Shown piece by piece: positions 22,302 to 48,427 of a stretch of DNA of 64,000 nucleotides (position 1 is its first letter; each line of letters starts with the position of its first letter). The translations under genes and the position numbers were made by a program. The DNA is taken from positions 65,649,247 to 65,713,246 of the forward strand of contig NC_081552.1 of assembly GCF_963082655.1 (NCBI RefSeq). Reading direction: 5' to 3'. The notes under the pieces were generated by a model. It did no database searches, was not told the DNA's origin, and saw only the letters and a program-made list of their open reading frames with translations. Source of the DNA: Stomoxys calcitrans (lineage: Eukaryota; Arthropoda; Insecta; Diptera; Muscidae).

Positions 22302-22998
22302 TGCAATATAGGTTTAGCATTTATGACTACAAACTGTGTATTAGGTTAAGAATACAAATAGCTTTAAAATTGACACATTTTTTGTTTTATGTTGTATTCG
22401 TCCTAATATTACTTTTAAATAAACCTATAGTGCAATATTAAGAGATATCTGTGATACATAAACTGAGTACCTGATTATTCTAATCGATTATTTCGACCTT
22501 TATACGTTTGTTTTGCCCCACTTTTACAAATTTTCGTGATTATAAATTTTTTTTTTTACAATTATAGACTCGCTTCCGTAACTATACATCTTTTACGTAA
22601 TTATACTTGACTCCCGTACTTATAAATTTTTCGTAAATTATACTTTTTTTTCGTAATTATACATTTTTTTTTTGCAATTATACAACTATATTTTTCGTGA
22701 CCCTAATTCAGTTCTTTAACTTTAATCTTTTATGCCAATCCTTACCCTAAACTTTCCGAACTTCTTATCCTCTACATATGCAGTGCTGGAATCAGCCAGG
22801 ATCTAGAACGAAATACCAGAAAGTAAAACAACCTTGAGACAAGTAGGCAACTTCGGTACTTCCCTGATTTTATTCATTATGCCCGGCTTTGATTCAGGGT
22901 GTGGGAGTTCCCCACGTTGTATCACAACTCTTCAAGAACCCCTTGCAATTTTTCCGCACACCAGCCCTATCTGCGAAATCTTGTCAGGTCAGGTGTTT
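22302..22998 (+). other. 3' untranslated region of element 1 with a degenerate AT-rich array
   Basis: No env or other gene. From about 22530 to 22700 the words 'cgtaattatac' and 'gtaattatacatttttt' recur at intervals of roughly 25-30 bp, separated by T runs. Directly before the 3' LTR the sequence is 'ggtcaggtgttt', a poor polypurine tract compared with that of element 2. Confidence 0.6.
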
Positions 22999-23577
22999 TG
23001 TTGCGGGACACCCTAATGTATCACACGAGATGACATCAAACCTTAAGGAAGAAAAAAAATTTTGCGTGGACCTCCCGGGATGTGAGGCCACGACTCCTAC
23101 GTGGAGGCCTCCAGAGCCACGATTAAATCTCTAGCTCCCGGCGAGAGATTTGCTACGGAAGCCGGAGAGAACTTCTGGACACCCGCGAGACGGCAGCCAC
23201 GGTATACTTTGCCGCGTGGTGGTCTGCCGTGTCCAGTGGCCTATTGCGGTGATGATGATTTTGTTTTGTTTGGCAGGAATTTGTCTGTCTTCTGCCTGTG
23301 TACAGCTTATGGCGGGAGGAGCATGCCCCTTGCAGTTGGGGTATACTGCAGCTCTCCAGTACCCCAATTAATTCCAATTGCTGACATGGGTGAGTGCGGC
23401 ACTTAATGTAGCTGTGGACTCCATCACATATTTTGTACCCACGAAAATTGTGATGCTGTCCTCAGCAGCATCACGTGTTGCATTCACCAATGTTCAGGAA
23501 TTGTTTGACTTTTTTGATTAATTCCATTTGCTGGCATGGGTGAGTGCAGCGCATGATGTAGCTGTGGACTTCATCGC
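22999..23577 (+). repeat. 3' LTR of element 1, first part
   Basis: It starts TGTTGCGGG as the 5' LTR does and matches it apart from an inserted 'ttc' at ~23173. It breaks at 'cttcatcgc', where element 2 inserted; the rest is at 41653-42602. Confidence 0.92.
23574..23577 (+). other. Target-site duplication of element 2 (TCGC), left copy
   Basis: TCGC precedes element 2 here and follows it at 41653-41656. The intact 5' LTR of element 1 has the motif once (cttcatcgcatat), which proves the insertion point. Confidence 0.9.
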
Positions 23578-26500
23578 TGTAGTGTGCAAGGGTCTAGTCT
23601 GAGCAAAACTCCACATAAATGTCTATAGATGAAACAAAACGGCATGGCACGCATATTTCACCGGCCTTATTGCTCGTCGGATGGGGGGGATCTTGCCAAT
23701 GTTCATCGTTTAATTTTACCAACTACCAGCTTTAATGTTAATGCGTGCACGAATGATAGCAAAACCAAAACAAAAGAAAGTCAGATAGAATAGACAAATA
23801 CACAAAGTATAAGGGGGTCACAACACCAGAGGATCTATTTCCGACATCATTCGATCGGCTGTGCTAAGGTGTAAGCTGCACAGCATGCCCTCCCTTCCTG
23901 TTTACCAAAAGCATCCAAAGAAATCGCTTCTTGGTTGGTAAACCCATAATATTTACCCTACCTTCCTTTACCGACCCTACAAATCAAACTCAAAGGTTTG
24001 GGCTTACTCCATATTTAACAAATTCATTAAATTTATTAAGAAAAAGTTCATTATCAAATCCGGTCGCTCACTATAGAGATGAATCACATCATACTTTAAA
24101 AACAGACAAAAAAAATATAATACAAGAAATATTAAAGTCAAGGCTAACAACCAATTTTTTTGTATATCTAAATTGATCCTTTAATTTACTAAAATTATTT
24201 TCATAACTCTTAAAAAAAACTAATCATTTAAATTAAATCTCAAAACTTAACAAGAAGGGTAAAAAAAAACACGGCATGAAAAAAAATATTTATATAATAT
24301 ATCAAATAAGAATCAATAGGCGAGTTTATTTGAATTCATAGCACGGCAGAAAAAAAACTAAATCGGCTGTGAAACAAACTTCATTTAAAAGGCTCATTAT
24401 GAAAAAAATGATATGTAGCTGGGTGAGTGTATTTCCATTTGTACTTCTGTTAAAGTAAAACAGCTGTGAGTGCATTGACCCCTTTTTTCCCTTACTTCAT
24501 TTTTTTCCTCTAATCACACATACATCAACACAACCCACTCGGTTGTATAAAACGAAAAACTAATTTTAAATCGCGAAGTTTTGACTAATATGCAGCCAAA
24601 TTTCAATAAAAATGGTATCAAATGTAAAAACAATATTTTATAGGCATACTGGGCTAGATATGTCAATGATCAAAAGGCACAAAACGTACATTCATATAAA
24701 AAATATTGCCAAAAAAAAATGTATCAAAGCTATTTCAATCGAAGCAGTGCTTTTCAGACCCAAGAACATTTTCTGAGAGTCTTGTTAACAGCGAATCAAC
24801 ATAGTTAACAGAGGTTCCAATAGCATGTTAACACTTTAGCATTGACATATCCACCAGCACAGAATCAGATATATATGTATATGCAGGATATTTAACTGAA
24901 CAAACACAAACAGATCATCTGAAAGTTGCCAACTTGCAAAAATTCCAATTTAAAAATTATGGGGGAAGATTTAAAACATTTTTAAATTAATTTAAAAGAA
25001 AAAAAATTATTTAATTTGACAAAAATTACCTGAGAGAGGTAACGGCATCTCTCTCACTCTCCGAAAAAAAATAAATCTGTTTGGCTTTGCTCAGTGGTAG
25101 TATAACAGTTTGCACTTACTTGGTTTTTGTTGGAGCTCCCACGTTGAAAGGCCTTTCGAGGGGTGAGGGGTTATTAAAACAAACCAGCAAACTCCAGCCA
25201 ATTGCAAGTTTTTAACAAAATACGTGGCATACACAAAAAATCACTTTTTTCAATATAGTCTTTAACATTTGATACGATTCACTCTATCGGTTTTTTTTTT
25301 ATATTCGCCTTTTTCTAAAACATTGGATTGCCAAACTACTTTTATCAAAAAAAACTCTCAATTAGGCATTAACTTTTTGTTTCACTTCCGATTCGGTTCT
25401 CCATCTCTGCCTTACAAATGAGCAAAAATTAAACTATATAACACTTGAGGCAAATTACATGGGCAAAAATACGGAAAAATAATTATTTTTTTAAGGTCTT
25501 TTTTTTTAGCAAGTTACAAAACCTAAGAATTAGCACGCAAGAGTTTTTTTTCCTTTTCGAGAGTGATTTTTCAACCAAAACGCGTTTGTTTCGATTCCCG
25601 AAAAACAAAAACTAAATGAGTTGCACCAATCCCGACGGCTCTTTTTTTTCTTGTACTTGAAACCAAGACAAACGATCCATTTAAAACACCAGAATCCACT
25701 GATCAAAAAAAATGAAAAGACTTTTGTTAGACTCTCTCAGGCAGCCAAATCTGCACAGCAGAAACAGAGAAATCCATATGAGCACAGGGAAAGGGGGAAT
25801 CCTAGAATCAGAGAAACAAGGCCCACAGAACAATGAGTTCTCAAAAGAAATTGAGAAATTGTTTAGAAAAAATGCCACCTTACCAAATGTATTAATCCAG
25901 GAGTTAAATGATCACAGGGGACCAACACTCCAGCTTTGGGGATAAAACCCTCAGCAAAAAGAAAATGCAGGAAACCAACACTTGCAACAATTATTTACCC
26001 GCGATTTTATAAATAAACATCGATTCTGCAGGACAATAAAAAAATAAAAATTGAGGAGAACTGCCACCAACAAAAAAAAATTTAATCCCTTTTTTACTAA
26101 AGCAAGGATAACGCTTTTACACTTTTAAAGAATCTCAAGTCCTTTACGACACAAAAACTTAAACTTTTGGGTGCACACGGTTGCAAGGTTGGAGCAAAAT
26201 GGATCTCAAATCAGTCTGCTACCACCTTTTGTAGCCTTGACCTAAACAATGGGGCAAATTGCTGAATTACTACCACAAATTAAAATTCTCAAAACCAAAA
26301 ATGTCTTCTTTTACATACATGCCACAAATACAATAATAATCCATTTGTGAGTGTATGGGAACTCCAATGCGAAAGAAAAGCTACAAAGAACATAGAAAAG
26401 AAGTTAACATTCACCACTATGGCTAAGGGGAAATTATAGCAACTTTTCAATATGGAGACAAAGTGCTCTAAACCTATGATTTGGTCGGACTTATATGTGT

Positions 26501-27090
26501 GGATGTTAACAACCAAAACCATTTTCCACCTTATCCAATAGTTGTCAAAAAAAAGAAAACCAAAAGGAAAAAAAATTAAACAACTCATTTGAACTTTGAT
26601 GTGATCAAATGATCAAAAAAAAGAAAACAAATGAAATGAAACAAACAAAAAAAAAAAAAATAAATAAATAAAAAATATAAATGTATAAAGAAACACTGCT
26701 GCCGGTATTCGAACTCACGCTCACCGGTTCGTAGGCTGTAACGCTTCCCCTAGGCTACCGCCTATGATGCGTCTCTGTTAGCTAAGTGATTATAACACAT
26801 GATCACACTAAGCTTTGAATCATCAACAGCGGTCAATGTAAGTGAATCCAACTGTAACAGTGCTACAAGGAAGAAGAAGAAGAAAAACAGCATAGGCAAA
26901 GCTCCAAATATGTTCCAATAAGGGAACAACATGAGACAAGCAATCACAACAACAAAAATACTCTAGCATCCACATTGTATGTTAACTCGCGTTGGGGTTG
27001 GAAAAAAAACAGGAATGTCCATATCTATTATCAGGCGGGCCAATTCCAAGAAATATATTCATATTGGGTACATCGACATGCGCCACTACA
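23578..27090 (-). repeat. 3' LTR of element 2 (3513 bp)
   Basis: Near-identical to 38138-41652. Unusually long for a Ty3/gypsy LTR. It is AT-rich with many A and T runs and holds a tRNA-like block with A and B boxes (26701-26762). No open frame of interest: the 60-100 codon frames occur on both strands and resemble nothing. Confidence 0.93.
26701..26762 (-). repeat. tRNA-derived (SINE-like) block in the 3' LTR of element 2
   Basis: On the minus strand there is an A-box-like TAGCCTAGGGG (26757-26747) and, 43 nt further on, a B-box-like GTTCGAATAC (26714-26705), a spacing like that of a tRNA. The T stem does not pair, so it is not a functional tRNA. An A/T-rich tail (26641-26690) follows on the 3' side, as in a tRNA-derived SINE. 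Confidence 0.6.
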
Positions 27091-27103
27091 AATACCCCCC
27101 GCC
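27091..27103 (-). promoter_or_regulatory. Polypurine tract of element 2
   Basis: On the minus strand GGCGGGGGGTATT directly precedes the TGTAGTG start of the 3' LTR. This is the expected plus-strand primer position. Pol ends only ~60 nt upstream. Confidence 0.75.
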
Positions 27104-27161
27104 AAAATCAGGCTTAATGGACAAATTGGAGATTAAGTCTGATACCGCATGGAGATGTAAT

Positions 27162-30100
27162 CTATTGCCTCATATCTTTTGCATGATATGTACCAACCAA
27201 CTTGCCTTGAAGATCTTCAAGTTCATAATAACAAGTACCAATTCTACGACGAACCCTGCATTTAATAAACGTAGGTGCAAGTTTAGCATTGTATCCTTTT
27301 TCAAAACTGCTTTGGCTAAAATTTCGCCTGTACACCTCTTGACCAACATTATATGACACTTCACGCGAACGTAGGTTGTATTGTCTTTCATTACGATCAT
27401 GTTGCACTCTCATCACATTAGCAGCTTTAGATCTAACAACATCAAAGGTGTCCGATCTATTAAATTGTATCGCCCTATCCTCTAAAGCATTCAGTTTTCT
27501 TAGCAGTTGGTAAATAGAACCATTAGTCACCATATTTTGACCAAAAACCATAAAATAAGGGGAAGTCCCAATGGCAGTATGTACTGTCGAACGCAAAGCA
27601 CACGCAATGTGGCTTAGTTTTTCATCCCAATTTTTTTGATCGGGTTTTACATATGCTTTAATAGCAGAAATGACGGATCGGTTCACCCGTTCAGAGGCAT
27701 TAGCCTGTGGCGAATGAACTGCGGTATAAATATGAGAAATCTTATAAAAATTCAAAAGATCATTAAATTTCTTTGCTTTGAACTGCGTTCCATTATCCGA
27801 GATAACGCTCTCTGGTACACCAAATGTGTGAAACAAATCTTCTTCCATATACTTAATAACAGCATCAGCTGTAAACTTTTTAACCGGGCGGAGAAAACAA
27901 AATTTTGAAAAATGATCAAGGACAATAAAAATTCCAATATTCCCTGAACTGGATCGAGGGTAAGGTCCTATGAAATCAACATATAAGCGCTGAAAGAATC
28001 TATGGGATGAACCAGTGTCACCCATGGGTGGTCTCATAACAACATTCGGGTGCTTTGTACACTTACAAACTTCACACGAGTTAACATAATTCTTAACATC
28101 CCAAACTAAGTTAGGCCAGAAATAGTATCTGCGAATTCTTTCCAATGTTTTATTAATCCCACAATGCGAAGACAAGGGGTCATCATGATGTTTCTGCAAT
28201 ACCTCTGGAACCATACTTTTAGGAATCCATAGCTTCCAAATCATGTCATCAGCAAGCTGTTCTCCAACGGCGTGTTCCGTTCGTCTGTATAAATAACCAT
28301 CGATAATCTTCAAGTCGGGAGTGGAATCGATATTATCTTCAACCCTTCTCAATAAGTCCTTGTAGTCGTCAGAGGAAAAATGTTCAGATTTTAAATCAAC
28401 AAAAACCCCGCGTTCATTTCTTATCTCGGACAGACCGCATATTTCGGACAAGTCATCGGTATTCGTACGCGAAAGCGCATCAGGAACTATATTCTGCGAC
28501 CCTTTTCTATGCTCAATTTTAAACCGGTATCCTTGAAGCTTCAAGGCCCATCTAGCTAGCCGCGTGCTTAAGTCAGTTTGGGACATGAGCCATTTAAGAG
28601 AGGCGTGATCAGTAATCACCGTGAACTCATGTCCCTCGACATAAGCTCGAAACTTTTTAATGCAAAGCATTGCTGCCAAGCATTCTTGTTCAGTGACACT
28701 ATAGTTACGTTGGGCTTGGTTAAGTTTCTTAGACATAAACGCCACAGGAAACTCATCGCCCTCCGCATTCTTTTGCACCAAGACTCCTCCTATTCCTGTT
28801 TTGCTGGCATCACAGTGTATAAAAAACGGCTGTGAAAAATCAGGACTGTGCAAAACAGGGGCTGAGCTAAGAATGGATTTCAAATCTTCAAAGGATTTTT
28901 GGGCCTCCTCGGTCCATACGAATTTTCGATTAGTCTTTAACAAATCAGTTAAGGGACTAGAAATAGCAGCGTAATTCCTGATGAACTTTCTGTACCACCC
29001 TGACATACCTAGAAATCGTCGGACTTGTTTAACCGATCTCGGTGCCGGGAATTCAGTAATGGCCGAAATTTTTCCTGGATCGGTACGAATGGTCCCGTCC
29101 CCAACTACATGGCCTAAATATCGGACTTCTGTCATACAAAATTTGCTTTTTCCTACGTTTATTGTAAGTCCAGCATTACGAAGACACTTAGCCACTTCCT
29201 TGAGTACCTCTAGATGCCGATCAAATGTGGGAGATACCACTAGAAGATCGTCCAGGTAGACCAAAACCTCAGCTCTGAGAGATGCCGGTATCACCCTATC
29301 CATAAGCCTGCACATGGTTTGCGGGGCATTACATAAGCCAAATGGCATAACTTTAAAATGATAAAGGGGTCTCCCAGGAACCGTGAATGCAGTCTTACCT
29401 TTCGACGATTCATCTAGCGGTATCTGCCAGAATGCATCCTTCAAATCAAGGCTGGATATAAATTCAGCTTTAGGCAAACGACTCAAGATACCATCGATAT
29501 GTGGAAGTGGATAAGCATCCCCCTCTGTAACAGCATTAAGTTTTCTACTGTCCAAGCATAAGCGATTCTTGCCTGGTTTTCTATGCAAAACAATCGGTGA
29601 AGACCAAGGACTAGTGGACTCCTCTATTACACCCATAGCCAACATGCGATCAAGCTCTTCGTAGATTAGCTTCTCAATCGCCGGAGAGACAGGGAAATGC
29701 CTTTGTTTTATCGGGGTTGCACCACCCGTATTAATAGTATGGCAAATAACATTCGTTTTCCCTAGGCCCTCTTTCGCGAACGAAGGAAATAAATCAATAG
29801 CACATTGCAGCTGAAACTTCTGATCCACCGAGAGATATTTCTGGTCTAAATTTTGGGCATCGCCTACTGAGAACGATAAACTGGAAATTCCATTTAAAAG
29901 AGACTGAGGAAGAAGGTTATATTTCCTCCAAAAATCAATGCCAAGTATCAAATCCTGTGACAAATTAGGAACCACATAAATAGTAATGGGCTCACTTTTA
30001 TTTCTAAAAACCACTTCAGTCGTAAAAACACCCGCAATCCTTTGAGGTTTACCATCTGCCGTATTGACAGTGGTGTTTAATTTCTTATAAGGAATCTGAG

Positions 30101-30590
30101 ATCCTAGAAAATCTATAGCGGCTTGAGCACCAAGACACGTCACGGAGGCACCAGTGTCTAAAAGACCTATCACATTTCTATCTAACAAACGCACCTCAGC
30201 ATAAGGACGAACATCGCCTGGCCTCTCAAGTACTGAAACACTAAAGTCCCTTTTTAAATTCTTGACAATTTTCCAAAATTTTCTCATCCTTTTGCTTGAC
30301 CTGGCAACCCTAGGCTCTTCATTGAATATCCTGTCTCTGACCTTGAGATAATTTTTTAACCTCACATGAAAAGGTATTATTGGACGAGGTCCTGTAGTAG
30401 TAGGGCAAGTACTTTGAATCACAGTATTATCCTGGGTATCATAATTTTTCTTTGAATATTCAGTATTATGGGTTTCCTCAGGTTGAGTATCCGAAGGAAA
30501 ATTTGAACGAGAAAATATTTTTACATGGTCTGTGAGGATTGTTGACAAGTTTTCGGTCTGGGTGCACTTCTCAGTGCAGAGCTCTGGAAG
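27162..30590 (-). CDS. pol: Pol polyprotein of element 2 (protease, RT, RNase H, integrase)
   Basis: It is read after a -1 frameshift at 30596-30590, giving a Gag-Pol fusion. Numbering below is from a TTG at 30548 (1128 residues). Protease DTGA at 131-134. Reverse transcriptase ~295-460, with catalytic D368 (SLDLKDAF) and YLDD 431-434, and the standard CNAPQTMCRLMD block. RNase H D580, E622, D647, D690. Integrase zinc domain H788-x6-H795 and C825-x2-C828; catalytic D858 (YVDFIG), D918 (SDNG) and E953 (ASERVN). The C-terminal module includes GQEVYRRN and ends in GTYHAKDMRQ, very like the end of Pol in element 1, so the two are cousins. No stop or missing catalytic residue was found. Plus-strand frames here are shadows. 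Confidence 0.93.
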   Translation of the reverse strand, partial: LPELCTEKCTQTENLSTILTDHVKIFSRSNFPSDTQPEETHNTEYSKKNYDTQDNTVIQSTCPTTTGPRPIIPFHVRLKNYLKVRDRIFNEEPRVARSSKRMRKFWKIVKNLKRDFSVSVLERPGDVRPYAEVRLLDRNVIGLLDTGASVTCLGAQAAIDFLGSQIPYKKLNTTVNTADGKPQRIAGVFTTEVVFRNKSEPITIYVVPNLSQDLILGIDFWRKYNLLPQSLLNGISSLSFSVGDAQNLDQKYLSVDQKFQLQCAIDLFPSFAKEGLGKTNVICHTINTGGATPIKQRHFPVSPAIEKLIYEELDRMLAMGVIEESTSPWSSPIVLHRKPGKNRLCLDSRKLNAVTEGDAYPLPHIDGILSRLPKAEFISSLDLKDAFWQIPLDESSKGKTAFTVPGRPLYHFKVMPFGLCNAPQTMCRLMDRVIPASLRAEVLVYLDDLLVVSPTFDRHLEVLKEVAKCLRNAGLTINVGKSKFCMTEVRYLGHVVGDGTIRTDPGKISAITEFPAPRSVKQVRRFLGMSGWYRKFIRNYAAISSPLTDLLKTNRKFVWTEEAQKSFEDLKSILSSAPVLHSPDFSQPFFIHCDASKTGIGGVLVQKNAEGDEFPVAFMSKKLNQAQRNYSVTEQECLAAMLCIKKFRAYVEGHEFTVITDHASLKWLMSQTDLSTRLARWALKLQGYRFKIEHRKGSQNIVPDALSRTNTDDLSEICGLSEIRNERGVFVDLKSEHFSSDDYKDLLRRVEDNIDSTPDLKIIDGYLYRRTEHAVGEQLADDMIWKLWIPKSMVPEVLQKHHDDPLSSHCGINKTLERIRRYYFWPNLVWDVKNYVNSCEVCKCTKHPNVVMRPPMGDTGSSHRFFQRLYVDFIGPYPRSSSGNIGIFIVLDHFSKFCFLRPVKKFTADAVIKYMEEDLFHTFGVPESVISDNGTQFKAKKFNDLLNFYKISHIYTAVHSPQANASERVNRSVISAIKAYVKPDQKNWDEKLSHIACALRSTVHTAIGTSPYFMVFGQNMVTNGSIYQLLRKLNALEDRAIQFNRSDTFDVVRSKAANVMRVQHDRNERQYNLRSREVSYNVGQEVYRRNFSQSSFEKGYNAKLAPTFIKCRVRRRIGTCYYELEDLQGKLVGTYHAKDMRQ

Positions 30591-32125
30591 TTTTTTGGAT
30601 TGTCATTACATTTCCTACAATTGGGTTTATATACTTGTGGAGTACCACAACCATAACAAAAAACACTGCGATCAGCTAAACATTCTTGGTATCTATGACC
30701 TGTATGCCTACAATTCCAACACACAGATGAGACCTCCGAAACTTCTTCAAACTCAAGTAATTCAGGCTCGTTAACTTCATTGAATTCAACTTCTGCTGCA
30801 CGCTTTGAAAAATGATTATGCCTGCTACCGGAGAATCCATGCTTACGACTCATATCCTGTAGGAAGAACTCCCTACGCCGACAAATTTCACGCAATTGAC
30901 CAACCGAGCTAATCGACATATTTAATATTTCATGCTGGATATCTGGTTGTAGATTGCGACGTAAGATTTCAACCAGCGTTTTATCATCAAGGGGCTTATC
31001 AAGTCTATCGACCAAGTCTATGACTGAATCATAAAAAGTGTCGAACGGTTCGTTTGGCTTTTGCTTCCTGTCGCGTATTAATTCTCTTATGTCAATATCA
31101 GTTCTGGAGTCCCTATAATGCTGACGTAATGCTCTACAAAGATCGAACCACTGAACAACACGTACAGTACGGTGGAACCTCCAAAACCAGTCACTGGCTT
31201 TGCCTTCAAAAAGTGCACTTGCGCTACGACAAAGGATGTCAAAATCACCATTTAATGTCTGTCTAGTTAGGGCTTCAACACGATAAATAAAATTATCAAC
31301 AGGTAAGCTGTTCGAACTACCATTGAACTTAATCTTCCAATTGGCAATTATTTGGCTAACCTTATCAGGACGAAAGGCTAAATCATGGCTTAAATTTGGG
31401 GCACTAAATCGAGATCGGCTTGCAGAATTACCATCATGGTTACTTCTACCAGAATCATTACTCACCTGTTCATTATTTGAATATGGCAACCCCAGCAACT
31501 GCTCTAATGTCCTCTGCTCAACCTCACCTACATTCAGCATAGAGGGACGGTTTCTATTGACTACCGGCGAAGATGCGTTAGCAATCTGTGGAGCCTGATT
31601 AATATTTAAACGAGCAAGACTAACCTCAACACTCTTCTCGACCCACGAAGTTACCTGATTGGAAAGAGACTGAACAATCTCTGTTTGTTGCCTATTCATC
31701 ATTGCAGTCACTAAGTCCTTTATGCTGTCCAAAGTCAAGCTGGGTTGAGGTAGTGACATACCTGCACTAGCATCTAAATTTGTAGTTATATCCTGGTTAG
31801 AGGATCCTTCAGCCCTATTGGCATCATAGCTCTTGGCTTTTGCAGACGACCTAGTTGCAACCGATGAAGTTGTTTTCTGCGAAGTTGCAAGACCGGACTT
31901 TTTGCTGTCCTTGACTATGTTCGACCCACACACTGGACAATCAGACTGAGTTTTAATGTAATTCGTAATGCATATTTTATGAAAGGAATGTCTACAGGAG
32001 GTTTCTGTTAAAAGTAATGGATTCTGAATAACAGAACTACAAATCTGGCATAAAAGCAAGTTACCCTCAACAGCTGTTCCAGCAGCTGAAATATGTTCAG
32101 AACTTCTCCCAAGGGGCATTTTCAA
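30521..32125 (-). CDS. gag: Gag of element 2 with an N-terminal RING-H2 finger
   Basis: 534 residues. Residues 26-66 form a textbook RING-H2: C26-x2-C29-x14-C44-x-H46-x2-H49-x2-C52-x10-C63-x2-C66. RING fingers of this kind usually bind E2 enzymes and act as ubiquitin ligases; that role is inference here. A polar linker (67-135) follows, then a possible helical segment (135-170), a Gag capsid-like region at ~250-420 (ASDWFWRFHRT, RDRKQKPNEPFDTFYDSV) alignable with Gag of element 1, and knuckles C469-x2-C472-x4-H477-x4-C482 and C490-x2-C493-x9-C503-x2-C506. The same frame runs without a break from RING to knuckles, so this is one protein. Met1 and Met3 are both possible starts. It would assemble particles; the RING could modify host or element proteins. 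Confidence 0.9.
   Translation of the reverse strand: MKMPLGRSSEHISAAGTAVEGNLLLCQICSSVIQNPLLLTETSCRHSFHKICITNYIKTQSDCPVCGSNIVKDSKKSGLATSQKTTSSVATRSSAKAKSYDANRAEGSSNQDITTNLDASAGMSLPQPSLTLDSIKDLVTAMMNRQQTEIVQSLSNQVTSWVEKSVEVSLARLNINQAPQIANASSPVVNRNRPSMLNVGEVEQRTLEQLLGLPYSNNEQVSNDSGRSNHDGNSASRSRFSAPNLSHDLAFRPDKVSQIIANWKIKFNGSSNSLPVDNFIYRVEALTRQTLNGDFDILCRSASALFEGKASDWFWRFHRTVRVVQWFDLCRALRQHYRDSRTDIDIRELIRDRKQKPNEPFDTFYDSVIDLVDRLDKPLDDKTLVEILRRNLQPDIQHEILNMSISSVGQLREICRRREFFLQDMSRKHGFSGSRHNHFSKRAAEVEFNEVNEPELLEFEEVSEVSSVCWNCRHTGHRYQECLADRSVFCYGCGTPQVYKPNCRKCNDNPKNFQSSALRSAPRPKTCQQSSQTM
30563..30596 (-). promoter_or_regulatory. -1 ribosomal frameshift site of element 2
   Basis: Minus-strand heptamer A_AAA_AAC (30596-30590) in the correct gag phase. 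Stops TAA and TGA in the pol frame lie just upstream, so the heptamer is at the very start of the overlap. After an 11-nt spacer a perfect 6-bp hairpin TGCACT-gaga-AGTGCA (30578-30563) follows. Gag ends at 30521. Confidence 0.8.
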
Positions 32126-32365
32126 ATAACATTAAAAAAATCAAAATCTAAGGTAAATCAAGACAAAATAATAACTAAAAAAAAATCAAAAAGTAAATAA
32201 AGACAACAATTCAATCAAGAAAACCAAGTTTGATTTGTTCGGGCATAGGAGGTAAGGTAGGATAGTAATAAAAAAAAATTATCAAACTATGCGAAAATAG
32301 ATGGAAATAATTAAGGAGAAGAATAACAAATTGATAGGGGAGACAGAAAGAAAAATGGTTATTTA
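32126..32365 (-). other. Element 2 leader between the Transib insertion and gag
   Basis: A-rich untranslated sequence of 240 nt upstream of the gag ATG. It joins the leader part at 37725-38114 once the Transib is removed. Confidence 0.7.
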
Positions 32366-32370
32366 CGATG
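32366..32370 (+). other. Target-site duplication of the Transib (CGATG), left copy
   Basis: CGATG also follows the right end at 37720-37724. Five base pairs is the Transib/RAG duplication length. Confidence 0.9.
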
Positions 32371-33802
32371 CACAGTGGGCCAAATGGCAAAAAAATTGGA
32401 AATAAGTCTACAACTTTTTATCTGTTGATTTTAGCCATACAAAATGTTCTAGACATTTGTAGAGGAGGACATAGGCTTTCAGAAAAGTGCTGTTGTTGGT
32501 CCATATCTTTAATACAGGGTGAGCTACAGGGTGTCAAAGTTGACCACTTTTGACTTCTCCAAGCTTCTGGGGGCCATAACTTTTGATCTACTCAACCGAT
32601 TTACATGATTTAGGACTCTAGAGAAAGAGCTTGACAAGATCTAAAAAACTTATGCATAAAGTACCATGCCATCGTGTACTGTTAAGGAGTTATGAATTGT
32701 TTAATTTTAAAATATGAAAATTTGGCCTTGGTTTTTTTCAGTGTTTTTTTAATAACTCCGTCAATTTTAAAGCTATAAACTTCATACTTCACACAAATTA
32801 TGCCAGCATATGTGTGCATAAAATACAAAAGGAATCACGTGAATATCTTTGGCGGTTTAAAAATGGCATCGTTTTCAATATGAAAAATATTTTTTTTGTC
32901 AAAAAATTGCAAAATTTTTCAAAAAAGATACTCCCATTTCCTTTAAGTTTTCGCAAACTTTGGCCGTCAAAGCATTATCATTTCTTTCCATTTTCACAAA
33001 GTCGAGGTATTAAGAAAAGTTTTAAGTGCTAATTTGGCTAATTTCGATATCAAACAACACCGTTATCTTAAGACCAAAATGGCCAATTTTTTTACTAAAC
33101 TTCAAAAGTTTCTCACTGGAAAAAAAGTTCCACGGGGATTTTTTCGCTTTTTTTGAACTTAAATGAAAGCTTAAAATGTTCCCAACATTTTAAGGTATGT
33201 CTCGCCATATCCTAGCCATAAATGAGATCGTAGCGATCAAAATACTGAAAAAAGTCAATTTTCAAGTAGTGCTATATTCATTGCTAAAAAACAAGTATTA
33301 CGTCACATTTTATTGCAAAGATGTTAAATAAACTTTTATTTGGTAACACTTCTTCTACAAAACACAAAAAGAATCATGGAAATATCTCTATTCTATTCCA
33401 TTTTATGGAACCGGCAATAAAAAAGTCAATTTTTCAAAAAAGTCGAATTTCCCAAATTTTGTTTTTGTTGTCCTAATTGCACATGACACACTATAGCCAT
33501 ATTTACGCAACATACCTTATCGTAAAGGAAATTTTCATACCTTTCCAACGATGTATAAAACATTTCTCAACTCGGATTCTATCTACTCTAAAATTCATTT
33601 ACACTTCATTAAACTCTATATAAAAATGTCTATTTGTGAAATGGAACCTTATATGGGGCCTACACTAAAACATTGATAGATTTGCCCAGGGTTTACAATA
33701 CAAATGTGTTAGAATAAAAAAAGGTCTCCTGCCAAAGTTTAAAAAAATTGGAATAAAAATATGTGTTTTAGAGCGAAAACACTTCGCATCGGCGTGCGTT
33801 TA
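32371..33802 (+). repeat. Left terminal inverted repeat of the Transib
   Basis: About 1432 bp, from CACAGTG to 'ggcgtgcgttta'. Usual Transib inverted repeats, as I know them, are a few tens of bp. Twelve bases after the heptamer comes an A-rich stretch that only loosely recalls the RSS nonamer. A 72-codon frame (32814-33032) recurs in the other arm and is not convincing. Confidence 0.9.
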
Positions 33803-33849
33803 TATGTATATTAGCTACTCCCAAAATAAAAAAGCATTTTAGTTTTGTA

Positions 33850-35892
33850 TTATTTGATTTTATTCTCTACCAAATAATCTAAGGTATCAAAATTTAAAAG
33901 CTCTTTAATTTGAATGGCATCGGGATCGTCCTTATCTATATCGTCACATATTTTTGGTAGCCATTTAGTTCTGATGCTGTATAGTACCGGATCAGACGAT
34001 AACAATAAATATTGAAGTAAATCATAATTTTGGTTAAATTTGGTGCTCTTTCGGGTATTGAAAAGCCGGAACTGTTTAACATCTCTATTACGGGATTCCT
34101 GAGCTTCTTCTGTAAGTTCTCCTAACGGAAGTATGTTGTATTCCACAATTTCCTTGCCATGATGTAAGACTTTATGTACTGTCGGTGTTAAAGCTTTCCA
34201 CGAATATAAATCAGATAAAATGTTTTTTGTGTCATTACTATAAGCTTCAAATTTGGTTGAATTTATCATCTTTTTGCTATTGATTACAGCCAAAATCACT
34301 TTGAATCGTCTTAGCAAGTGTTCATCAAGACCGGTTATTTTAGATGTCGATACGGGGTCCTCAAAAAACCGCCTTGCCGAGTTGCCATCATTTGTGCTTC
34401 CGTATCCGTAAAGAGGTTTATCTATTATAAGTCCCTTTTGTTTAAACTCCAACTGGATTCGATTCTTCTCTTCCTGCCTCATTTTGTGAAGATCTTGGTT
34501 GTTTCTAGCAGAGACATCGCGGTTTCCAGGGCTAGTCCGATATTTAAGGTCATACGATAAATGCAAACAATACTCCATGAATCGAATTCTACAGTGCAGG
34601 GGCGAAATACCGAAATTGAGCGCATTTTCGTTTACTAAATTTTCATCAGACTTGTCCTCGAATTGCCCATTCTTCTTGCCACAAATATTGCATCTCCAAT
34701 TGGACATAACGCCAGTTAATGCGTTTGCCACCTTTCCATCGATCATAGTGAGTTGTAGTTGAAACGAAACTTTTATATTTCTTCCCAATTGGTTTATAAC
34801 AATCATGGGTAATGCAGCAATTTCTTCCTTTATTTCGTTCACCAAAGATCGTGTTGTGTTCCGGTCTTCCTTTGTATACTCAAACCGAATTGGGCGACAT
34901 AAATATTTTGACCCAGGTGTTCTATTTATCCATATATCTTGAAATGCATTTTCTTTCGATGATGAAGATTGGTCCTTGTACAATCTCATTCTCAATGGTA
35001 CTAATGATGCCATGAAAATTGATGCGAAGTTGGTATCTATTTCTGTTTGTTGCTTATATTCGGAAAATCCAGATGATCCATCACAACCCCATTTGCTGAT
35101 CAAAACCACTTCGGAATTATTACATGTGTTCAACTGTTCTTCAGTAAAATTAGAAATAATTCTAACAGCTGTATTTTCAACAAGATCAGCAAGTTTCACT
35201 CTTGCTTTTAATTCGTCCACGTATATATTTGATGGCACCATTTTCGTCCTGGTGTTGTACAATTTATGTTTTGAGGGTAAACAACCCCATCCTTTTTCAC
35301 GAAGAGCCTTCCTCATTGTTGAGTATTTGTTTCTTGAGAGGCCTAGGTTCAAAATCAGGGCCAGTGCATCTTCCTCCGTGAATTCTGTAGTCGATTTTGG
35401 AGTTGGAATACTTTCTACCATTCTCTTTACCCTTTTCGGAGATGCTAATGGTAAAACATCGACAATTCGTCCAACATTTTTTGGTTGTGTTTTTAACAAT
35501 GCTGTTTTGAACGTATCTTTTATTAAATTTGGCGGATGTGCCGCCAATAGTTCCTCTTGTTTTTTCTTTTTGGTTTTCTCCGTAACTTCGTCGTATGCTT
35601 TGCTAGGCCGGCCGGGAATCAGCGGTTTAATTTCAATAAGTAGATCCGATTTCAGCCACTTCTCATACATTTTGAAAAACTTGATTTTTGCGAATGAACA
35701 TTCTGGCAACCTTCTCTCAAATGATTTGTAGAATTTTTCAAGTTTGTCTAAAGCGTCTTTATTTAGCCTTATTCCATATATGTGGTCCAAAGTGTAAACA
35801 AGTTCCTTAAATGACTCCGTGTATGATTTGGAATCATTTTTGATGTCCCATACAATTTTCGAAAGAGTGGAATACTTCAGTATGACTTCCAT
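33850..35892 (-). CDS. Transib transposase (RAG1-like DDE recombinase)
   Basis: 680 residues, no intron or stop, a usual length for Transib. It would cut at the CACAGTG ends by nicking and hairpin formation, like RAG1, and reinsert the element with a 5-bp duplication. The catalytic triad is recognisable by context: D271 (SKWGCDGSSGFSEYKQ), D385 (LTMIDGKVANAL) and E599 (LTEEAQESRNRD), the last aligning with the RAG1 GNESGNK glutamate. The RAG1-type zinc site is also present: C401-x2-C404 (WRCNICGK) and H573-x4-H578 (TVHKVLHHGK). Other Transib signatures are WINRTPGSKYLCRPI at ~321 and YGSTNDGNSARRFF at ~497. The N terminus is basic and shows no RING finger. It is probably active or recently so. 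The 251-codon plus-strand frame at 34976-35731 is a shadow. Confidence 0.92.
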   Translation of the reverse strand: MEVILKYSTLSKIVWDIKNDSKSYTESFKELVYTLDHIYGIRLNKDALDKLEKFYKSFERRLPECSFAKIKFFKMYEKWLKSDLLIEIKPLIPGRPSKAYDEVTEKTKKKKQEELLAAHPPNLIKDTFKTALLKTQPKNVGRIVDVLPLASPKRVKRMVESIPTPKSTTEFTEEDALALILNLGLSRNKYSTMRKALREKGWGCLPSKHKLYNTRTKMVPSNIYVDELKARVKLADLVENTAVRIISNFTEEQLNTCNNSEVVLISKWGCDGSSGFSEYKQQTEIDTNFASIFMASLVPLRMRLYKDQSSSSKENAFQDIWINRTPGSKYLCRPIRFEYTKEDRNTTRSLVNEIKEEIAALPMIVINQLGRNIKVSFQLQLTMIDGKVANALTGVMSNWRCNICGKKNGQFEDKSDENLVNENALNFGISPLHCRIRFMEYCLHLSYDLKYRTSPGNRDVSARNNQDLHKMRQEEKNRIQLEFKQKGLIIDKPLYGYGSTNDGNSARRFFEDPVSTSKITGLDEHLLRRFKVILAVINSKKMINSTKFEAYSNDTKNILSDLYSWKALTPTVHKVLHHGKEIVEYNILPLGELTEEAQESRNRDVKQFRLFNTRKSTKFNQNYDLLQYLLLSSDPVLYSIRTKWLPKICDDIDKDDPDAIQIKELLNFDTLDYLVENKIK

Positions 35893-36288
35893 AACTTATA
35901 AATGTCCTTTACGCCTCTACAAAATATAATGAAGAAAATTTGGATTTTGTTCAAATATTTATGCAATATATTCACAATTAATGACCCATTTCAGGTATCA
36001 GACGCAATCGTAAAAAGGGGTCCAAAGTGCCTCTTTTTACTTACTCTTCTATAATTATTTACCTGGACTCGAATTTGGTTAAAAAAAATGACAATGAATT
36101 TTTTATGGGTAGGTTTTTTCACATTCATTGATACGGTGGATTTCCTGGGAATTCGACATAGCGAAACAGGTAACATTTGTCTGCATCAAATCTTAACACA
36201 AATATATATATATATGCAGGTATATTTCTAGGTTACTTTTTATTCAAAAATCATCAGCTTACATTAAAAATAGATGTAGGTACTATAC
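35893..36288 (-). other. Transib 5' untranslated/promoter region
   Basis: Between the transposase start and the right inverted repeat, about 400 bp of AT-rich sequence unique to the transposon. It presumably contains the transposase promoter, but no clear TATA box with initiator was identified. Confidence 0.5.
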
Positions 36289-37719
36289 AAACGCACGCCG
36301 ATGCGAAGTGTTTTCGCTCTAAAACACATATTTTTATTCCAATTTTTTTAAACTTTGGCAGGAGACCTTTTTTTATTCTAACACATTTGTATTGTAAACC
36401 CTGGGCAAATCTATCAATGTTTTAGTGTAGGCCCCATATAAGGTTCCATTTCACAAATAGACATTTTTATATAGAGTTTAATGAAGTGTAAATGAATTTT
36501 AGAGTAGATAGAATCCGAGTTGAGAAATGTTTTATACATCGTTGGAAAGGTATGAAAATTTCCTTTACGATAAGGTATGTTGCGTAAATATGGCTATAGT
36601 GTGTCATGTGCAATTAGGACAACAAAAACAAAATTTGGGAAATTCGACTTTTTTGAAAAATTGACTTTTTTATTGCCGGTTCCATAAAATGGAATAGAAT
36701 AGAGATATTTCCATGATTCTTTTTGTGTTTTGTAGAAGAAGTGTTACCAAATAAAAGTTTATTTAACATCTTTGCAATAAAATGTGACGTAATACTTGTT
36801 TTTTAGCAATGAATATAGCACTACTTGAAAATTGACTTTTTTCAGTATTTTGATCGCTACGATCTCATTTATGGCTAGGATATGGCGAGACATACCTTAA
36901 AATGTTGGGAACATTTTAAGCTTTCATTTAAGTTCAAAAAAAGCGAAAAAATCCCCGTGGAACTTTTTTTCCAGTGAGAAACTTTTGAAGTTTAGTAAAA
37001 AAATTGGCCATTTTGGTCTTAAGATAACGGTGTTGTTTGATATCGAAATTAGCCAAATTAGCACTTAAAACTTTTCTTAATACCTCGACTTTGTGAAAAT
37101 GGAAAGAAATGATAATGCTTTGACGGCCAAAGTTTGCGAAAACTTAAAGGAAATGGGAGTATCTTTTTTGAAAAATTTTGCAATTTTTTGACAAAAAAAA
37201 TATTTTTCATATTGAAAACGATGCCATTTTTAAACCGCCAAAGATATTCACGTGATTCCTCTTGTATTTTATGCACACATATGCTGGCATAATTTGTGTG
37301 AAGTATGAAGTTTATAGCTTTAAAATTGACGGAGTTATTAAAAAAACACTGAAAAAAACCAAGGCCAAATTTTCATATTTTAAAATTAAACAATTCATAA
37401 CTCCTTAACAGTACACGATGGCATGGTACTTTATGCATAAGTTTTTTAGATCTTGTCAAGCTCTTTCTCTAGAGTCCTAAATCATGTAAATCGGTTGAGT
37501 AGATCAAAAGTTATGGCCCCCAGAAGCTTGGAGAAGTCAAAAGTGGTCAACTTTGACACCCTGTAGCTCACCCTGTATTAAAGATATGGACCAACAACAG
37601 CACTTTTCTGAAAGCCTATGTCCTCCTCTACAAATGTCTAGAACATTTTGTATGGCTAAAATCAACAGATAAAAAGTTGTAGACTTATTTCCAATTTTTT
37701 TGCCATTTGGCCCACTGTG
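36289..37719 (-). repeat. Right terminal inverted repeat of the Transib
   Basis: About 1431 bp, the inverse of 32371-33802. It ends ggcccactgtg and is followed by the duplication CGATG (37720-37724). Confidence 0.9.
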
Positions 37720-37724
37720 CGATG
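37720..37724 (+). other. Target-site duplication of the Transib (CGATG), right copy
   Basis: Identical to 32366-32370. Confidence 0.9.
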
Positions 37725-38114
37725 GGTAAAAACATCCTCGATAATATTCATACATTCCAAATCGCAAATAGAGAAAACAAATAATAAAAGTTTCCAATCA
37801 GATATACGCTGAAGCCAGAATTAGAGCCTAGTCCAAAACCTGTATTCATTCAACCTGAACACCAACTGAAACTTTCACACGAGAGAAAAAAGGGCAGGAC
37901 AACCTAACTCCTGGTTATATGCTTCAGCACCGCTGCATATCAAACATATAAATTCCAACGAAGTTTAGTTATCCCGACAAAAGAAAATAAATGGGGAAAA
38001 AAATAAAGGCAGTATAAAGAAAAGAGAGGAAAAATACTAGGAGCTGAGTGAAAAATCCTACGATATCTGAAATATCAAGCCGTTCAATATAAAAAAAATT
38101 TTTAATTCACTCGT
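37725..38114 (-). other. Element 2 leader, primer-site side
   Basis: About 390 nt of untranslated sequence between the primer-binding site and the Transib insertion; no reading frame worth reporting. Confidence 0.7.
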
Positions 38115-38132
38115 GCCCCACGTTGGGCGCCA
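38115..38132 (-). promoter_or_regulatory. Primer-binding site of element 2 (tRNA-Lys, 18 nt)
   Basis: Minus strand TGGCGCCCAACGTGGGGC, the exact complement of the 3' end of tRNA-Lys as I know it from retroviral primer sites. It starts 5 nt inside the LTR end. Confidence 0.88.
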
Positions 38133-38137
38133 AAAAC

Positions 38138-41100
38138 TCTATTGTGCAAGGGTCTAGTCTGAGCAAAACTCCACATAAATGTCTATAGATGAAACAAAAC
38201 GGCATGGCACGCATATTTCACCGGCCTTATTGCTCGTCGGATGGGGGGGATCTTGCCAATGTTCATCGTTTAATTTTACCAACTACCAGCTTTAATGTTA
38301 ATGCGTGCACGAATGATAGCAAAACCAAAACAAAAGAAAGTCAGATAGAATAGACAAATACACAAAGTATAAGGGGGTCACAACACCAGAGGATCTATTT
38401 CCGACATCATTCGATCGGCTGTGCTAAGGTGTAAGCTGCACAGCATGCCCTCCCTTCCTGTTTACCAAAAGCATCCAAAGAAATCGCTTCTTGGTTGGTA
38501 AACCCATAATATTTACCCTACCTTCCTTTACCGACCCTACAAATCAAACTCAAAGGTTTGGGCTTACTCCATATTTAACAAATTCATTAAATTTATTAAG
38601 AAAAAGTTCATTATCAAATCCGGTCGCTCACTATAGAGATGAATCACATCATACTTTAAAAACAGACAAAAAAAATATAATACAAGAAATATTAAAGTCA
38701 AGGCTAACAACCAATTTTTTTGTATATCTAAATTGATCCTTTAATTTACTAAAATTATTTTCATAACTCTTAAAAAAAACTAATCATTTAAATTAAATCT
38801 CAAAACTTAACAAGAAGGGTAAAAAAAAACACGGCATGAAAAAAAATATTTATATAATATATCAAATAAGAATCAATAGGCGAGTTTATTTGAATTCATA
38901 GCACGGCAGAAAAAAAACTAAATCGGCTGTGAAACAAACTTCATTTAAAAGGCTCATTATGAAAAAAATGATATGTAGCTGGGTGAGTGTATTTCCATTT
39001 GTACTTCTGTTAAAGTAAAACAGCTGTGAGTGCATTGACCCCTTTTTTCCCTTACTTCATTTTTTTCCTCTAATCACACATACATCAACACAACCCACTC
39101 GGTTGTATAAAACGAAAAACTAATTTTAAATCGCGAAGTTTTGACTAATATGCAGCCAAATTTCAATAAAAATGGTATCAAATGTAAAAACAATATTTTA
39201 TAGGCATACTGGGCTAGATATGTCAATGATCAAAAGGCACAAAACGTACATTCATATAAAAAATATTGCCAAAAAAAAATGTATCAAAGCTATTTCAATC
39301 GAAGCAGTGCTTTTCAGACCCAAGAACATTTTCTGAGAGTCTTGTTAACAGCGAATCAACATAGTTAACAGAGGTTCCAATAGCATGTTAACACTTTAGC
39401 ATTGACATATCCACCAGCACAGAATCAGATATATATGTATATGCAGGATATTTAACTGAACAAACACAAACAGATCATCTGAAAGTTGCCAACTTGCAAA
39501 AATTCCAATTTAAAAATTATGGGGGAAGATTTAAAACATTTTTAAATTAATTTAAAAGAAAAAAAATTATTTAATTTGACAAAAATTACCTGAGAGAGGT
39601 AAGGGCATCTCTCTCACTCTCCGAAAAAAAATAAATCTGTTTGGCTTTGCTCAGTGGTAGTATAACAGTTTGCACTTACTTGGTTTTTGTTGGAGCTCCC
39701 ACGTTGAAAGGCCTTTCGAGGGGTGAGGGGTTATTAAAACAAACCAGCAAACTCCAGCCAATTGCAAGTTTTTAACAAAATACGTGGCATACACAAAAAA
39801 TCACTTTTTTCAATATAGTCTTTAACATTTGATACGATTCACTCTATCGGTTTTTTTTTTATATTCGCCTTTTTCTAAAACATTGGATTGCCAAACTACT
39901 TTTATCAAAAAAAACTCTCAATTAGGCATTAACTTTTTGTTTCACTTCCGATTCGGTTCTCCATCTCTGCCTTACAAATGAGCAAAAATTAAACTATATA
40001 ACACTTGAGGCAAATTACATGGGCAAAAATACGGAAAAATAATTATTTTTTTAAGGTCTTTTTTTTTAGCAAGTTACAAAACCTAAGAATTAGCACGCAA
40101 GAGTTTTTTTTCCTTTTCGAGAGTGATTTTTCAACCAAAACGCGTTTGTTTCGATTCCCGAAAAACAAAAACTAAATGAGTTGCACCAATCCCGACGGCT
40201 CTTTTTTTTCTTGTACTTGAAACCAAGACAAACGATCCATTTAAAACACCAGAATCCACTGATCAAAAAAAATGAAAAGACTTTTGTTAGACTCTCTCAG
40301 GCAGCCAAATCTGCACAGCAGAAACAGAGAAATCCATATGAGCACAGGGAAAGGGGGAATCCTAGAATCAGAGAAACAAGGCCCACAGAACAATGAGTTC
40401 TCAAAAGAAATTGAGAAATTGTTTAGAAAAAATGCCACCTTACCAAATGTATTAATCCAGGAGTTAAATGATCACAGGGGACCAACACTCCAGCTTTGGG
40501 GATAAAACCCTCAGCAAAAAGAAAATGCAGGAAACCAACACTTGCAACAATTATTTACCCGCGATTTTATAAATAAACATCGATTCTGCAGGACAATAAA
40601 AAAATAAAAATTGAGGAGAACTGCCACCAACAAAAAAAAATTTAATCCCTTTTTTACTAAAGCAAGGATAACGCTTTTACACTTTTAAAGAATCTCAAGT
40701 CCTTTACGACACAAAAACTTAAACTTTTGGGTGCACACGGTTGCAAGGTTGGAGCAAAATGGATCTCAAATCAGTCTGCTACCACCTTTTGTAGCCTTGA
40801 CCTAAACAATGGGGCAAATTGCTGAATTACTACCACAAATTAAAATTCTCAAAACCAAAAATGTCTTCTTTTACATACATGCCACAAATACAATAATAAT
40901 CCATTTGTGAGTGTATGGGAACTCCAATGCGAAAGAAAAGCTACAAAGAACATAGAAAAGAAGTTAACATTCACCACTATGGCTAAGGGGAAATTATAGC
41001 AACTTTTCAATATGGAGACAAAGTGCTCTAAACCTATGATTTGGTCGGACTTATATGTGTGGATGTTAACAACCAAAACCATTTTCCACCTTATCCAATA

Positions 41101-41652
41101 GTTGTCAAAAAAAAGAAAACCAAAAGGAAAAAAAATTAAACAACTCATTTGAACTTTGATGTGATCAAATGATCAAAAATAAGAAAACAAATGAAATGAA
41201 ACAAACAAAAAAAAAAAAAAAATAAATAAATAAAAAATATAAATGTATAAAGAAACACTGCTGCCGGTATTCGAACTCACGCTCACCGGTTCGTAGGCTG
41301 TAACGCTTCCCCTAGGCTACCGCCTATGATGCGTCTCTGTTAGCTAAGTGATTATAACACATGATCACACTAAGCTTTGAATCATCAACAGCGGTCAATG
41401 TAAGTGAATCCAACTGTAACAGTGCTACAAGGAAGAAGAAGAAGAAAAACAGCATAGGCAAAGCTCCAAATATGTTCCAATAAGGGAACAACATGAGACA
41501 AGCAATCACAACAACAAAAATACTCTAGCATCCACATTGTATGTTAACTCGCGTTGGGGTTGGAAAAAAAACAGGAATGTCCATATCTATTATCAGGCGG
41601 GCCAATTCCAAGAAATATATTCATATTGGGTACATCGACATGCGCCACTACA
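38138..41652 (-). repeat. 5' LTR of element 2 (3515 bp)
   Basis: On the minus strand it starts TGTAGTGGCGCATG at 41652 and ends next to the primer site. It matches 23578-27090 with very few differences. The last six bases at the primer side read CAATAGA rather than CACTACA as at the outer end of the other LTR. Confidence 0.92.
41263..41324 (-). repeat. tRNA-derived (SINE-like) block in the 5' LTR of element 2
   Basis: Same block as at 26701-26762: A box 41319-41309 and B box 41276-41267, both unchanged. Confidence 0.6.
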
Positions 41653-42602
41653 TCGCATATTTTGTGCCCACGAAAATATGGATGCTGTCCTCAGCAGCAT
41701 TTTGTGCTGCATTCACCGATGCCAGTTTTGCCCAGGAATTGCTTGGTTTTTTAATTTGTTTAATTTATGTATTGCTGCCGCCTCCGAAATGTGTGTGCCA
41801 GAAATGAAATGTGGTTTCAAGAAATCAGCTGATATTGAAATGACATCTGCCATCTGACAGCGTTGCCACCCTCCCTCTTAGGAGATACACTGCACAAAAT
41901 TGTTGTTGGCGTATAAAGGTTGGTAAAGCAGTTCATTCATCAAAGCCACTTAAGAGAATTTAAATTAGGGGAAAGCTAGCAGAAGAGATTTGACGATTTG
42001 GAAGAAATGGGGAAAATGGGGAAAATGGAAAGAGACAGAATATGATCAAATATGTCTTCACAGAAAATAAGAAATGGCTTCAATGGCTTTTGAGTGAGAA
42101 TTAGCCTATAAAAGGGGGTCTTGGAAGAAAAATGCCATATTAAGTTTGGTTCAATTTGTGCTGTGAGATAGAAGTGGAAAATTTTAAAGTTTTTTTTTTG
42201 TTATTCAAGAAGTTGATACGGGTAAAATTGTTAATGACAGTGAATAACATTTTTTTGAAGTTAAATGCGTTTTTTTTTTTTTGTAGTTTGCCTAAAGAAA
42301 GGAGTGTTTTGTGCCGGGATACGAATTAATTGTTTGTTTGTTAATTTGTTTCCGATTCAGAGTGATAGAAGGTAGGTTTGATATTGATATTTGGTAGGGC
42401 AGGGCGACTGGAGGTTTCCATCTACCTCCCACTTAGGAAGAAATCTGTGCTTGTGTGTTAGTGTTGTCTTGTTTGTTAGAGCATTTTTTTTATTGATGCG
42501 ACCCCAGGGCAAAAGATGATGGGATGGGACCTCCCCTGAAGAGGCGACGAGAGCTAGCCGGTGCCCAAGTCATTTTTGGCCGCAAATAGGGGCCTCGTAA
42601 CA
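41653..42602 (+). repeat. 3' LTR of element 1, second part
   Basis: It begins with the duplicated TCGC, continues catattttgtgcccacgaaa as in the 5' LTR, includes the TATA box (tataaaagggggtc at ~42110) and ends CGTAACA before the duplication AAAT at 42603-42606. Confidence 0.92.
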
Positions 42603-48418: not shown

Positions 48419-48427
48419 TACTTTATA

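What the first reader, a model, noticed from the sequence alone, without database searches (positions are those of the whole stretch)
30521..32125. RING-H2 finger fused to the N terminus of a Ty3/gypsy Gag
Residues 26-66 match the RING-H2 spacing exactly (C-x2-C-x14-C-x-H-x2-H-x2-C-x10-C-x2-C), in one uninterrupted frame with a capsid-like region and two zinc knuckles. The related Gag of element 1 has no RING, so the domain was gained or lost between relatives. I do not know of a described Gag-RING fusion in this group, though one may exist. A Gag-linked ubiquitin-ligase-type domain could act on host restriction or piRNA factors, or on particle assembly; that function is inference.
Basis: partly seen in the sequence, partly recalled or inferred. 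Interest (0 to 1): 0.82.

Follow-up and report, generated by a model that had tools for sequence, protein, structure and literature searches.

The report
Fly retrotransposon Gag with RING finger
A jumping element in a fly genome makes a capsid protein that carries a ubiquitin-ligase-type zinc finger at its front end; the domain is real and widely kept in relatives, but this kind of fusion was already reported in 2013 and what it does is still unknown.

Summary
On the minus strand at 32125-30521, one open frame encodes a RING-H2 finger (residues 26-66), a long amphipathic helix, a Ty3/Arc-type capsid domain and C-terminal zinc fingers. It is the Gag of an LTR element (23578-41652; two 3.5-kb LTRs 99.83% identical; 4-bp target duplication) nested in the 3' LTR of element 1 and itself hit by a Transib transposon in its leader.

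The RING is no accident: of 112 Gag relatives, 86 cover the region and 82 of these keep all eight zinc ligands. AlphaFold2 gives the RING block-mean pLDDT 88-96; Foldseek's best RING match is RNF165, E 7.5e-3.

The fusion is not new. Negre & Simpson (2013) describe a 531-aa Gag with a RING in Calliphora vicina Isis-like (Osvaldo lineage), say Osvaldo has one too, and that Isis lacks it.

Added here: the RING is an N-terminal extension upstream of a TRS motif that starts the RING-less Gag of element 1; it is kept in Musca, Lucilia and Drosophila relatives; E2-contact residues are present, a basic linchpin is not. Best reading: an E3-like module clustered by capsid assembly; untested. A purely structural zinc module remains possible.

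The parts
30521..32125 (-). Gag ORF with N-terminal RING (534 codons from TTG; 532 aa from ATG at 32119)
   Evidence: ORF; Pfam
31928..32050 (-). RING-H2 finger, residues 26-66
   Evidence: Pfam E 1.7e-8; block-mean pLDDT 88-96; 82 of 86 covering relatives keep 8 of 8 ligands
31817..31855 (-). TRSSAKAKSYDAN motif, residues 91-103, corresponding to the N-terminus of the RING-less Gag of element 1 (MSIQTRSQAKKRKIPESFDANN)
   Evidence: TR[SN] within 60 residues after the RING in 56 of 82 RING rows (shuffled mean 7.5) and within the first 80 residues in 27 of 42 element-1-set rows (shuffled mean 4.7)
31607..31732 (-). Long amphipathic helix, residues 132-173, between RING and capsid
   Evidence: block-mean pLDDT 84-92 for 131-170; hydrophobic period 3.86, 0 of 2000 shuffles as strong; heptad test negative
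30839..31369 (-). Capsid (CA) domain, residues about 253-429
30608..30721 (-). CCHC knuckle (469-482) and CCCC finger (490-506)
   Evidence: read from sequence; conserved in the 77 rows of A1
27162..30548 (-). Pol ORF: protease, RT, RNase H, integrase; overlaps the Gag end in another frame
23578..27090 (-). 3' LTR (TGTAGTG...CACTACA)
   Evidence: 99.83% over 3516 columns to the 5' LTR; ends
38137..41652 (-). 5' LTR (its 3' boundary approximate)
38115..38132 (-). Primer-binding site TGGCGCCCAACGTGGGGC, tRNA-Lys type (type recalled)
   Evidence: read
23574..23577 (.). Target-site duplication TCGC, low side
41653..41656 (.). Target-site duplication TCGC, high side
32371..37719 (.). Transib-like DNA transposon inserted in the leader of the element (TSD CGATG; ends CACAGTG)
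   Evidence: transposase ORF matches 6pqn E 6.8e-84

Best explanation
This is the Gag of an Isis-like/Osvaldo-type Ty3/gypsy LTR element of a fly, one member of a broad group of Gags that carry an N-terminal RING-H2 module (shown, apart from the exact lineage name and the host species). Most likely mechanism (inferred): the RING recruits a host E2; assembly of the capsid lattice, helped by the long helix between RING and capsid, brings many RINGs together, and the cluster ubiquitinates Gag itself or proteins held on the particle, tuning particle stability or traffic. Shown: RING ligands, predicted RING and CA folds, the predicted helix, the hydrophobic and proline positions that contact E2 in other RINGs (that rule is recalled). 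Inferred: E2 binding, ubiquitin transfer, activation by assembly, substrate. My odds: identity 0.9; any real ligase activity about 0.5; the assembly-clustered version about 0.4.
For: RING Pfam hits and predicted fold (best Foldseek RING match RNF165, E 7.5e-3). Of 112 relatives, 82 hold 8 of 8 ligands; of the 86 with 60 or more residues before the TRS column, 82 do, while non-ligand RING positions share only 26.5% mean pairwise identity, so the ligands look selected. Residue before C2 is I/V/L in 51 of 82 RING rows and in 19 of 19 of the nearest RING rows that I listed (P0001-P0022 less three without the pattern); the proline after C7 in 81 of 82. CA matches Arc/Ty3-type capsids. Near-identical LTRs and open Gag and Pol frames show that a RING-bearing element moved recently. 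Published parallel: C. vicina Isis-like, Gag 531 aa with RING, Pol 1137 aa, 4-bp TSD, no env, against 532 aa, 1128 aa, 4 bp and no room for env here.
Against: No basic linchpin residue after C8: Gly in the window copy, lysine in only 12 of 82 RING rows (arginine in none) and in 0 of the 19 nearest; Ala before C2 in 21 of 82. RING non-ligand positions diverge nearly as fast as disordered stretches: 26.5% mean pairwise identity against 20.5% (72-125) and 26.0% (178-250), helix 31.7%, CA 62.3%, NC 67.7%, so no conserved partner surface is evident. The helix is not a canonical heptad coiled coil. pTM 0.41: no fixed arrangement of domains. Some relatives seem to do without the RING (P0106 and P0108). 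No activity data in anything I read.
Confidence: 0.5

Rival explanations
1. The RING is a structural zinc module (dimerisation or RNA/protein scaffold) without ligase activity, as in RING proteins such as BMI1 that lack activity alone (recalled).
For: No lysine or arginine after C8 in 70 of 82 rows; the best sequence match in the PDB is a RING2/BMI-1 chimera, with the best-scoring stretch in the chimera's second RING; mainly ligands and a few core positions are conserved.
Against: Proline after C7 kept in 81 of 82 and I/V/L before C2 in 51 of 82; best RING fold match is an E2~Ub-bound E3 RING.
Confidence: 0.3
2. The RING directs ubiquitination of a host silencing or restriction factor (piRNA/RNAi or capsid sensor).
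For: Fast divergence of the RING apart from ligands would fit an arms race.
Against: No substrate known, no dN/dS could be measured; fast divergence fits weak constraint equally well.
Confidence: 0.12
3. Self-ubiquitination replaces a retroviral late domain and recruits ESCRT for particle release.
For: Window Gag has no P(S/T)AP, PPxY or YPxL motif.
Against: Late motifs are as rare in the element-1 set without RING (P(S/T)AP 0, PPxY 3, YPxL 0 of 43) as in the 112 relatives of the window Gag (3, 2, 0), so there is no trade-off; this element has no env.
Confidence: 0.06
4. Chance or degenerate reading: the RING pattern is an accident or a private fusion of one copy.
For: None beyond the shortness of the domain.
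Against: Pfam E 1.7e-8; 82 of 112 relatives have it in frame.
Confidence: 0.02

Closest known systems
Cv_Isis-like of Calliphora vicina (Gypsy/Osvaldo lineage), Negre & Simpson 2013, PMC3630058
   Same: Gag with RING finger (531 aa there, 532 here); separate Pol (1137, 1128 aa); no env; 4-bp TSD; very long LTRs; recent insertion (passages read)
   Different: LTRs 2577 and 2574 bp there, about 3.5 kb here; its sequence lies in supplements I could not open, so identity was not measured
Osvaldo of Drosophila buzzatii
   Same: Stated in PMC3630058 to have a RING finger in Gag; Lys-type primer site as here (recalled)
   [quoted passage not shown] paper not read)
Isis of Drosophila buzzatii
   Same: Gag 40% and Pol 60% identical to Cv_Isis-like
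   Different: No RING; has env
Drosophila Arc1/Arc2 (domesticated Ty3/gypsy Gag)
   Same: Capsid fold
   Different: Host genes; no RING that I know of (recalled)
TRIM5alpha-type restriction factors (recalled)
   Same: N-terminal RING, helical spacer, capsid lattice involved: works-like analogy only
   Different: No B-box hit here; the capsid is part of the same protein; no relation shown beyond the RING

Membership tests
Ty3/gypsy (Metaviridae) LTR element | Protease-RT-RNase H-integrase order in Pol | tested here: met
Ty3/gypsy (Metaviridae) LTR element | Two LTRs, PBS, TSD | tested here: met
Ty3/gypsy (Metaviridae) LTR element | Gag with capsid fold and CCHC knuckle | tested here: met
   CCHC at 469-482 read (no Pfam zf-CCHC hit for this Gag)
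Osvaldo lineage / Isis-like | Plan of Cv_Isis-like in PMC3630058: Gag of about 531 aa with RING, Pol of about 1137 aa, no env, 4-bp TSD (the RING alone does not define the lineage, since Isis lacks it) | tested here: met
Osvaldo lineage / Isis-like | Pol groups with Osvaldo/Isis in a tree | not testable with these tools
   no named Osvaldo or Isis sequence turned up in what I fetched
RING-type E3 ligase | Eight zinc ligands with RING-H2 spacing and RING fold | tested here: met
   (fold predicted)
RING-type E3 ligase | E2-contact residues (hydrophobic before C2, Pro after C7; recalled rule) | tested here: met
   I28 and P64 in the window copy; relatives
RING-type E3 ligase | Basic linchpin after C8 (common, not universal; recalled) | tested here: not met
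   Gly67
RING-type E3 ligase | Ubiquitin transfer | not testable with these tools
   needs bench work
TRIM family (considered) | B-box between RING and coiled coil | tested here: not met
   no B-box family in Pfam scan up to E 1
TRIM family (considered) | Coiled coil | tested here: inconclusive
   long amphipathic helix, period 3.86; heptad test negative, 4563 of 5000 shuffles as good

The most novel reading that the evidence does not exclude
A retroelement-encoded, capsid-activated E3: the Gag lattice itself concentrates many RINGs, a mirror image of TRIM5alpha, used by the element to ubiquitinate whatever binds its own particle, and kept across elements of Musca, Lucilia and Drosophila (by descent or with horizontal transfer, which is not excluded).
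Probability: 0.25. Interest if true: 0.75.

Novelty: new member of a known kind. Interest (0 to 1): 0.33.

Why it matters
The fusion itself is in print, but I found no work on its function in nine searches of one open-access library. A broadly kept RING inside a capsid protein would be a natural case of an assembly-clustered ubiquitin ligase and a tractable entry to how ubiquitin shapes retroelement particles. If it proves inactive, it is a lesson that a RING name does not mean a ligase.

Tried and rejected
Own-genome search for other copies and dN/dS: the identical request was sent ten times and never answered, so there is no dN/dS, no copy count in this genome and no host name. The search for related loci on viral contigs and on genome contigs, which holds bacteria and archaea, found no relative; for a fly element that says little. 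Heptad coiled coil: rejected. Late-domain trade-off: rejected. Rfam on 22000-43000 and tRNA scan of the window: nothing. PMC12910113 (Drosophila virilis TEs): passages read show only a figure legend that lists a RING domain, not which element. PMC10799480: passages on RAG1 and on host-TE fusions, no Gag-RING. PMC5408442: passages only; gives the OSVALDO/ULYSSES group, no RING mention in what I saw. TRIM-family membership: rejected, no B-box.

Caveats on counts: alignment A1 holds the window plus 76 of the 82 RING-positive rows (P0001, P0055, P0082, P0109, P0110, P0112 left out), so its invariant ligands are by construction, and it was also the alignment used for the structure and the helix tests; the fairer figure is 82 of 86 covering rows. 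The other 26 of 112 rows have under 60 residues ahead of the TRS column; truncated gene models and true loss cannot be told apart there, though P0106 and P0108 keep an MPLTRSP start and a TRRQTQ stretch with no RING between. The tree used 152 of 156 Gags (P0013, P0109, P0110, P0112 dropped for short capsid), SH-aLRT only, midpoint root. The first and third homologue searches scored only about 8000 candidates sharing most words, so counts are not a census; the best 120 of 135 matches were listed, and the rows new there (P0155 on) were not used in any count.

Full report

The element. Gag and Pol (30548-27162) sit between LTRs at 23578-27090 and about 38137-41652 that are 99.83% identical over 3516 columns, flanked by a 4-bp TCGC duplication, with a TGGCGCCCAACGTGGGGC primer site and a purine tract before the 3' LTR. 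By coordinates only 71 bases separate the Pol stop and the LTR, so there is no room for env there. The insertion interrupts the 3' LTR of element 1 (LTR matches 15379-15955 and 22998-23577, with a piece of the same repeat unit resuming at 41647-41721). A Transib-like transposon (32371-37719, 5-bp CGATG duplication, CACAGTG ends; transposase E 6.8e-84 to 6pqn) lies in the leader, 251 bases upstream of the Gag ATG; so this copy is disrupted upstream although both frames are open.

Is the RING kept? A protein search returned 112 relatives. 82 of 112 hold the full eight-ligand RING-H2 pattern in their first 160 residues. 86 of 112 have at least 60 residues ahead of the TRS column, and 82 of these 86 keep 8 of 8 ligands; of the other four, P0013 and P0074 have one ligand replaced, P0098 an altered first pair, and P0111 is a distant row on a long branch. 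Named carriers include Musca autumnalis, Lucilia cuprina, Drosophila pseudoobscura, D. gunungcola, D. elegans, D. yakuba and D. bipectinata; one RING row is filed under Puccinia striiformis, which I take for fly contamination (inference). P0001 differs from the window Gag at two residues and may come from the same species; the closest clearly distinct ones, P0002-P0005, are 68-71% identical and carry the RING.

Where did it come from? Element 1's Gag is related (29% over 336 columns; Pol 49%). None of its 42 listed relatives has the RING pattern. In a capsid tree of 152 Gags, the 43 element-1-type Gags form one side of a branch with SH-aLRT 100; RING and RING-less labels mix on the other side (25 changes, shuffled mean 50.6), and since most RING-less rows there start late much of that mixing may be truncation. 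Element 1's Gag starts MSIQTRSQAKKRKIPESFDANN, resembling TRSSAKAKSYDANR behind the RING of element 2. TR[SN] occurs in 27 of 42 element-1-type rows at a median position of 5 (4.7 expected from shuffles) and within 60 residues behind the RING in 56 of 82 RING rows, median 19 (7.5 expected); the longer form with [FY]DxN is seen in 19 of 42 and only 11 of 82. So the RING looks like an N-terminal extension ahead of a shared start region, not an insertion into the capsid part. Gain in the RING clade is the simpler guess; without an outgroup it is not shown.

How might it work? For a ligase: the proline after C7 in 81 of 82 RING rows, I/V/L before C2 in 51 of 82 and in 19 of 19 of the nearest listed. 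Against: no basic residue after C8 in the window copy, a lysine in only 12 of 82; non-ligand RING positions diverge nearly as fast as disordered parts (26.5% mean pairwise identity; 20.5% for 72-125, 26.0% for 178-250, helix 31.7%, capsid 62.3%, nucleocapsid 67.7%). The helix between RING and capsid is strongly amphipathic with a period of 3.86 (0 of 2000 shuffles as strong), but fails a heptad test (4563 of 5000 shuffles as good), so a classical coiled coil is not shown. The idea that ubiquitin replaces a budding motif has no support: such motifs are rare with and without RING. I favour an assembly-clustered E3-like module acting on Gag or particle-bound proteins, at about 0.4, with a purely structural zinc module as the main rival.

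Is it new? No. Negre & Simpson (2013, PMC3630058; [quoted passage not shown] a supplement legend also marks a RING in their Pao element. The window element matches this plan closely. I could not open their supplement or fetch Osvaldo, so lineage by sequence is untested. Nine text searches turned up no functional study in this open-access library; subscription papers are mostly not in it.

Verdict: real, conserved, already described in kind; function open. Interest 0.33.

Noticed in passing
32371-37719: Transib-type transposon (transposase ORF 33850-35892 minus, E 6.8e-84 to 6pqn) with about 1.43-kb terminal inverted repeats over 99% identical, much longer than the Transib ends I recall.
   Followed up: partly
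15379-23577 and 41647-41721: Element 1, a RING-less relative (Gag 17569-18972, Pol 19137-22301), whose 3' LTR is split by element 2.
   Followed up: partly
3994-4756, 11104-14366, 42761-52590, 58606 onward: 153-bp tandem satellite arrays in many blocks; long inverted partners at 48812-50136 against 12830-14366.
   Followed up: no
54584-58491: Minus-strand non-LTR retrotransposon: RT ORF (RVT_1 E 7.7e-28), endonuclease ORF (Exo_endo_phos E 2.7e-9) and a further upstream ORF 57502-58491 with only sub-cut-off Pfam hits.
   Followed up: partly
9379-9997 and 61560-62175: Two near-identical inverted-repeat stretches, arms of about 200 bp at 99-100%.
   Followed up: no
30521-30548: Gag and the listed Pol ORF overlap by 28 bases with Pol in the -1 frame relative to Gag (from the coordinates), which suggests programmed frameshifting.
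   Followed up: no
PMC3630058 supplement legend (not the window): The legend for Pao_Cv1 of C. vicina also marks a RING finger, so a second LTR superfamily may carry one (sequence not seen).
   Followed up: no
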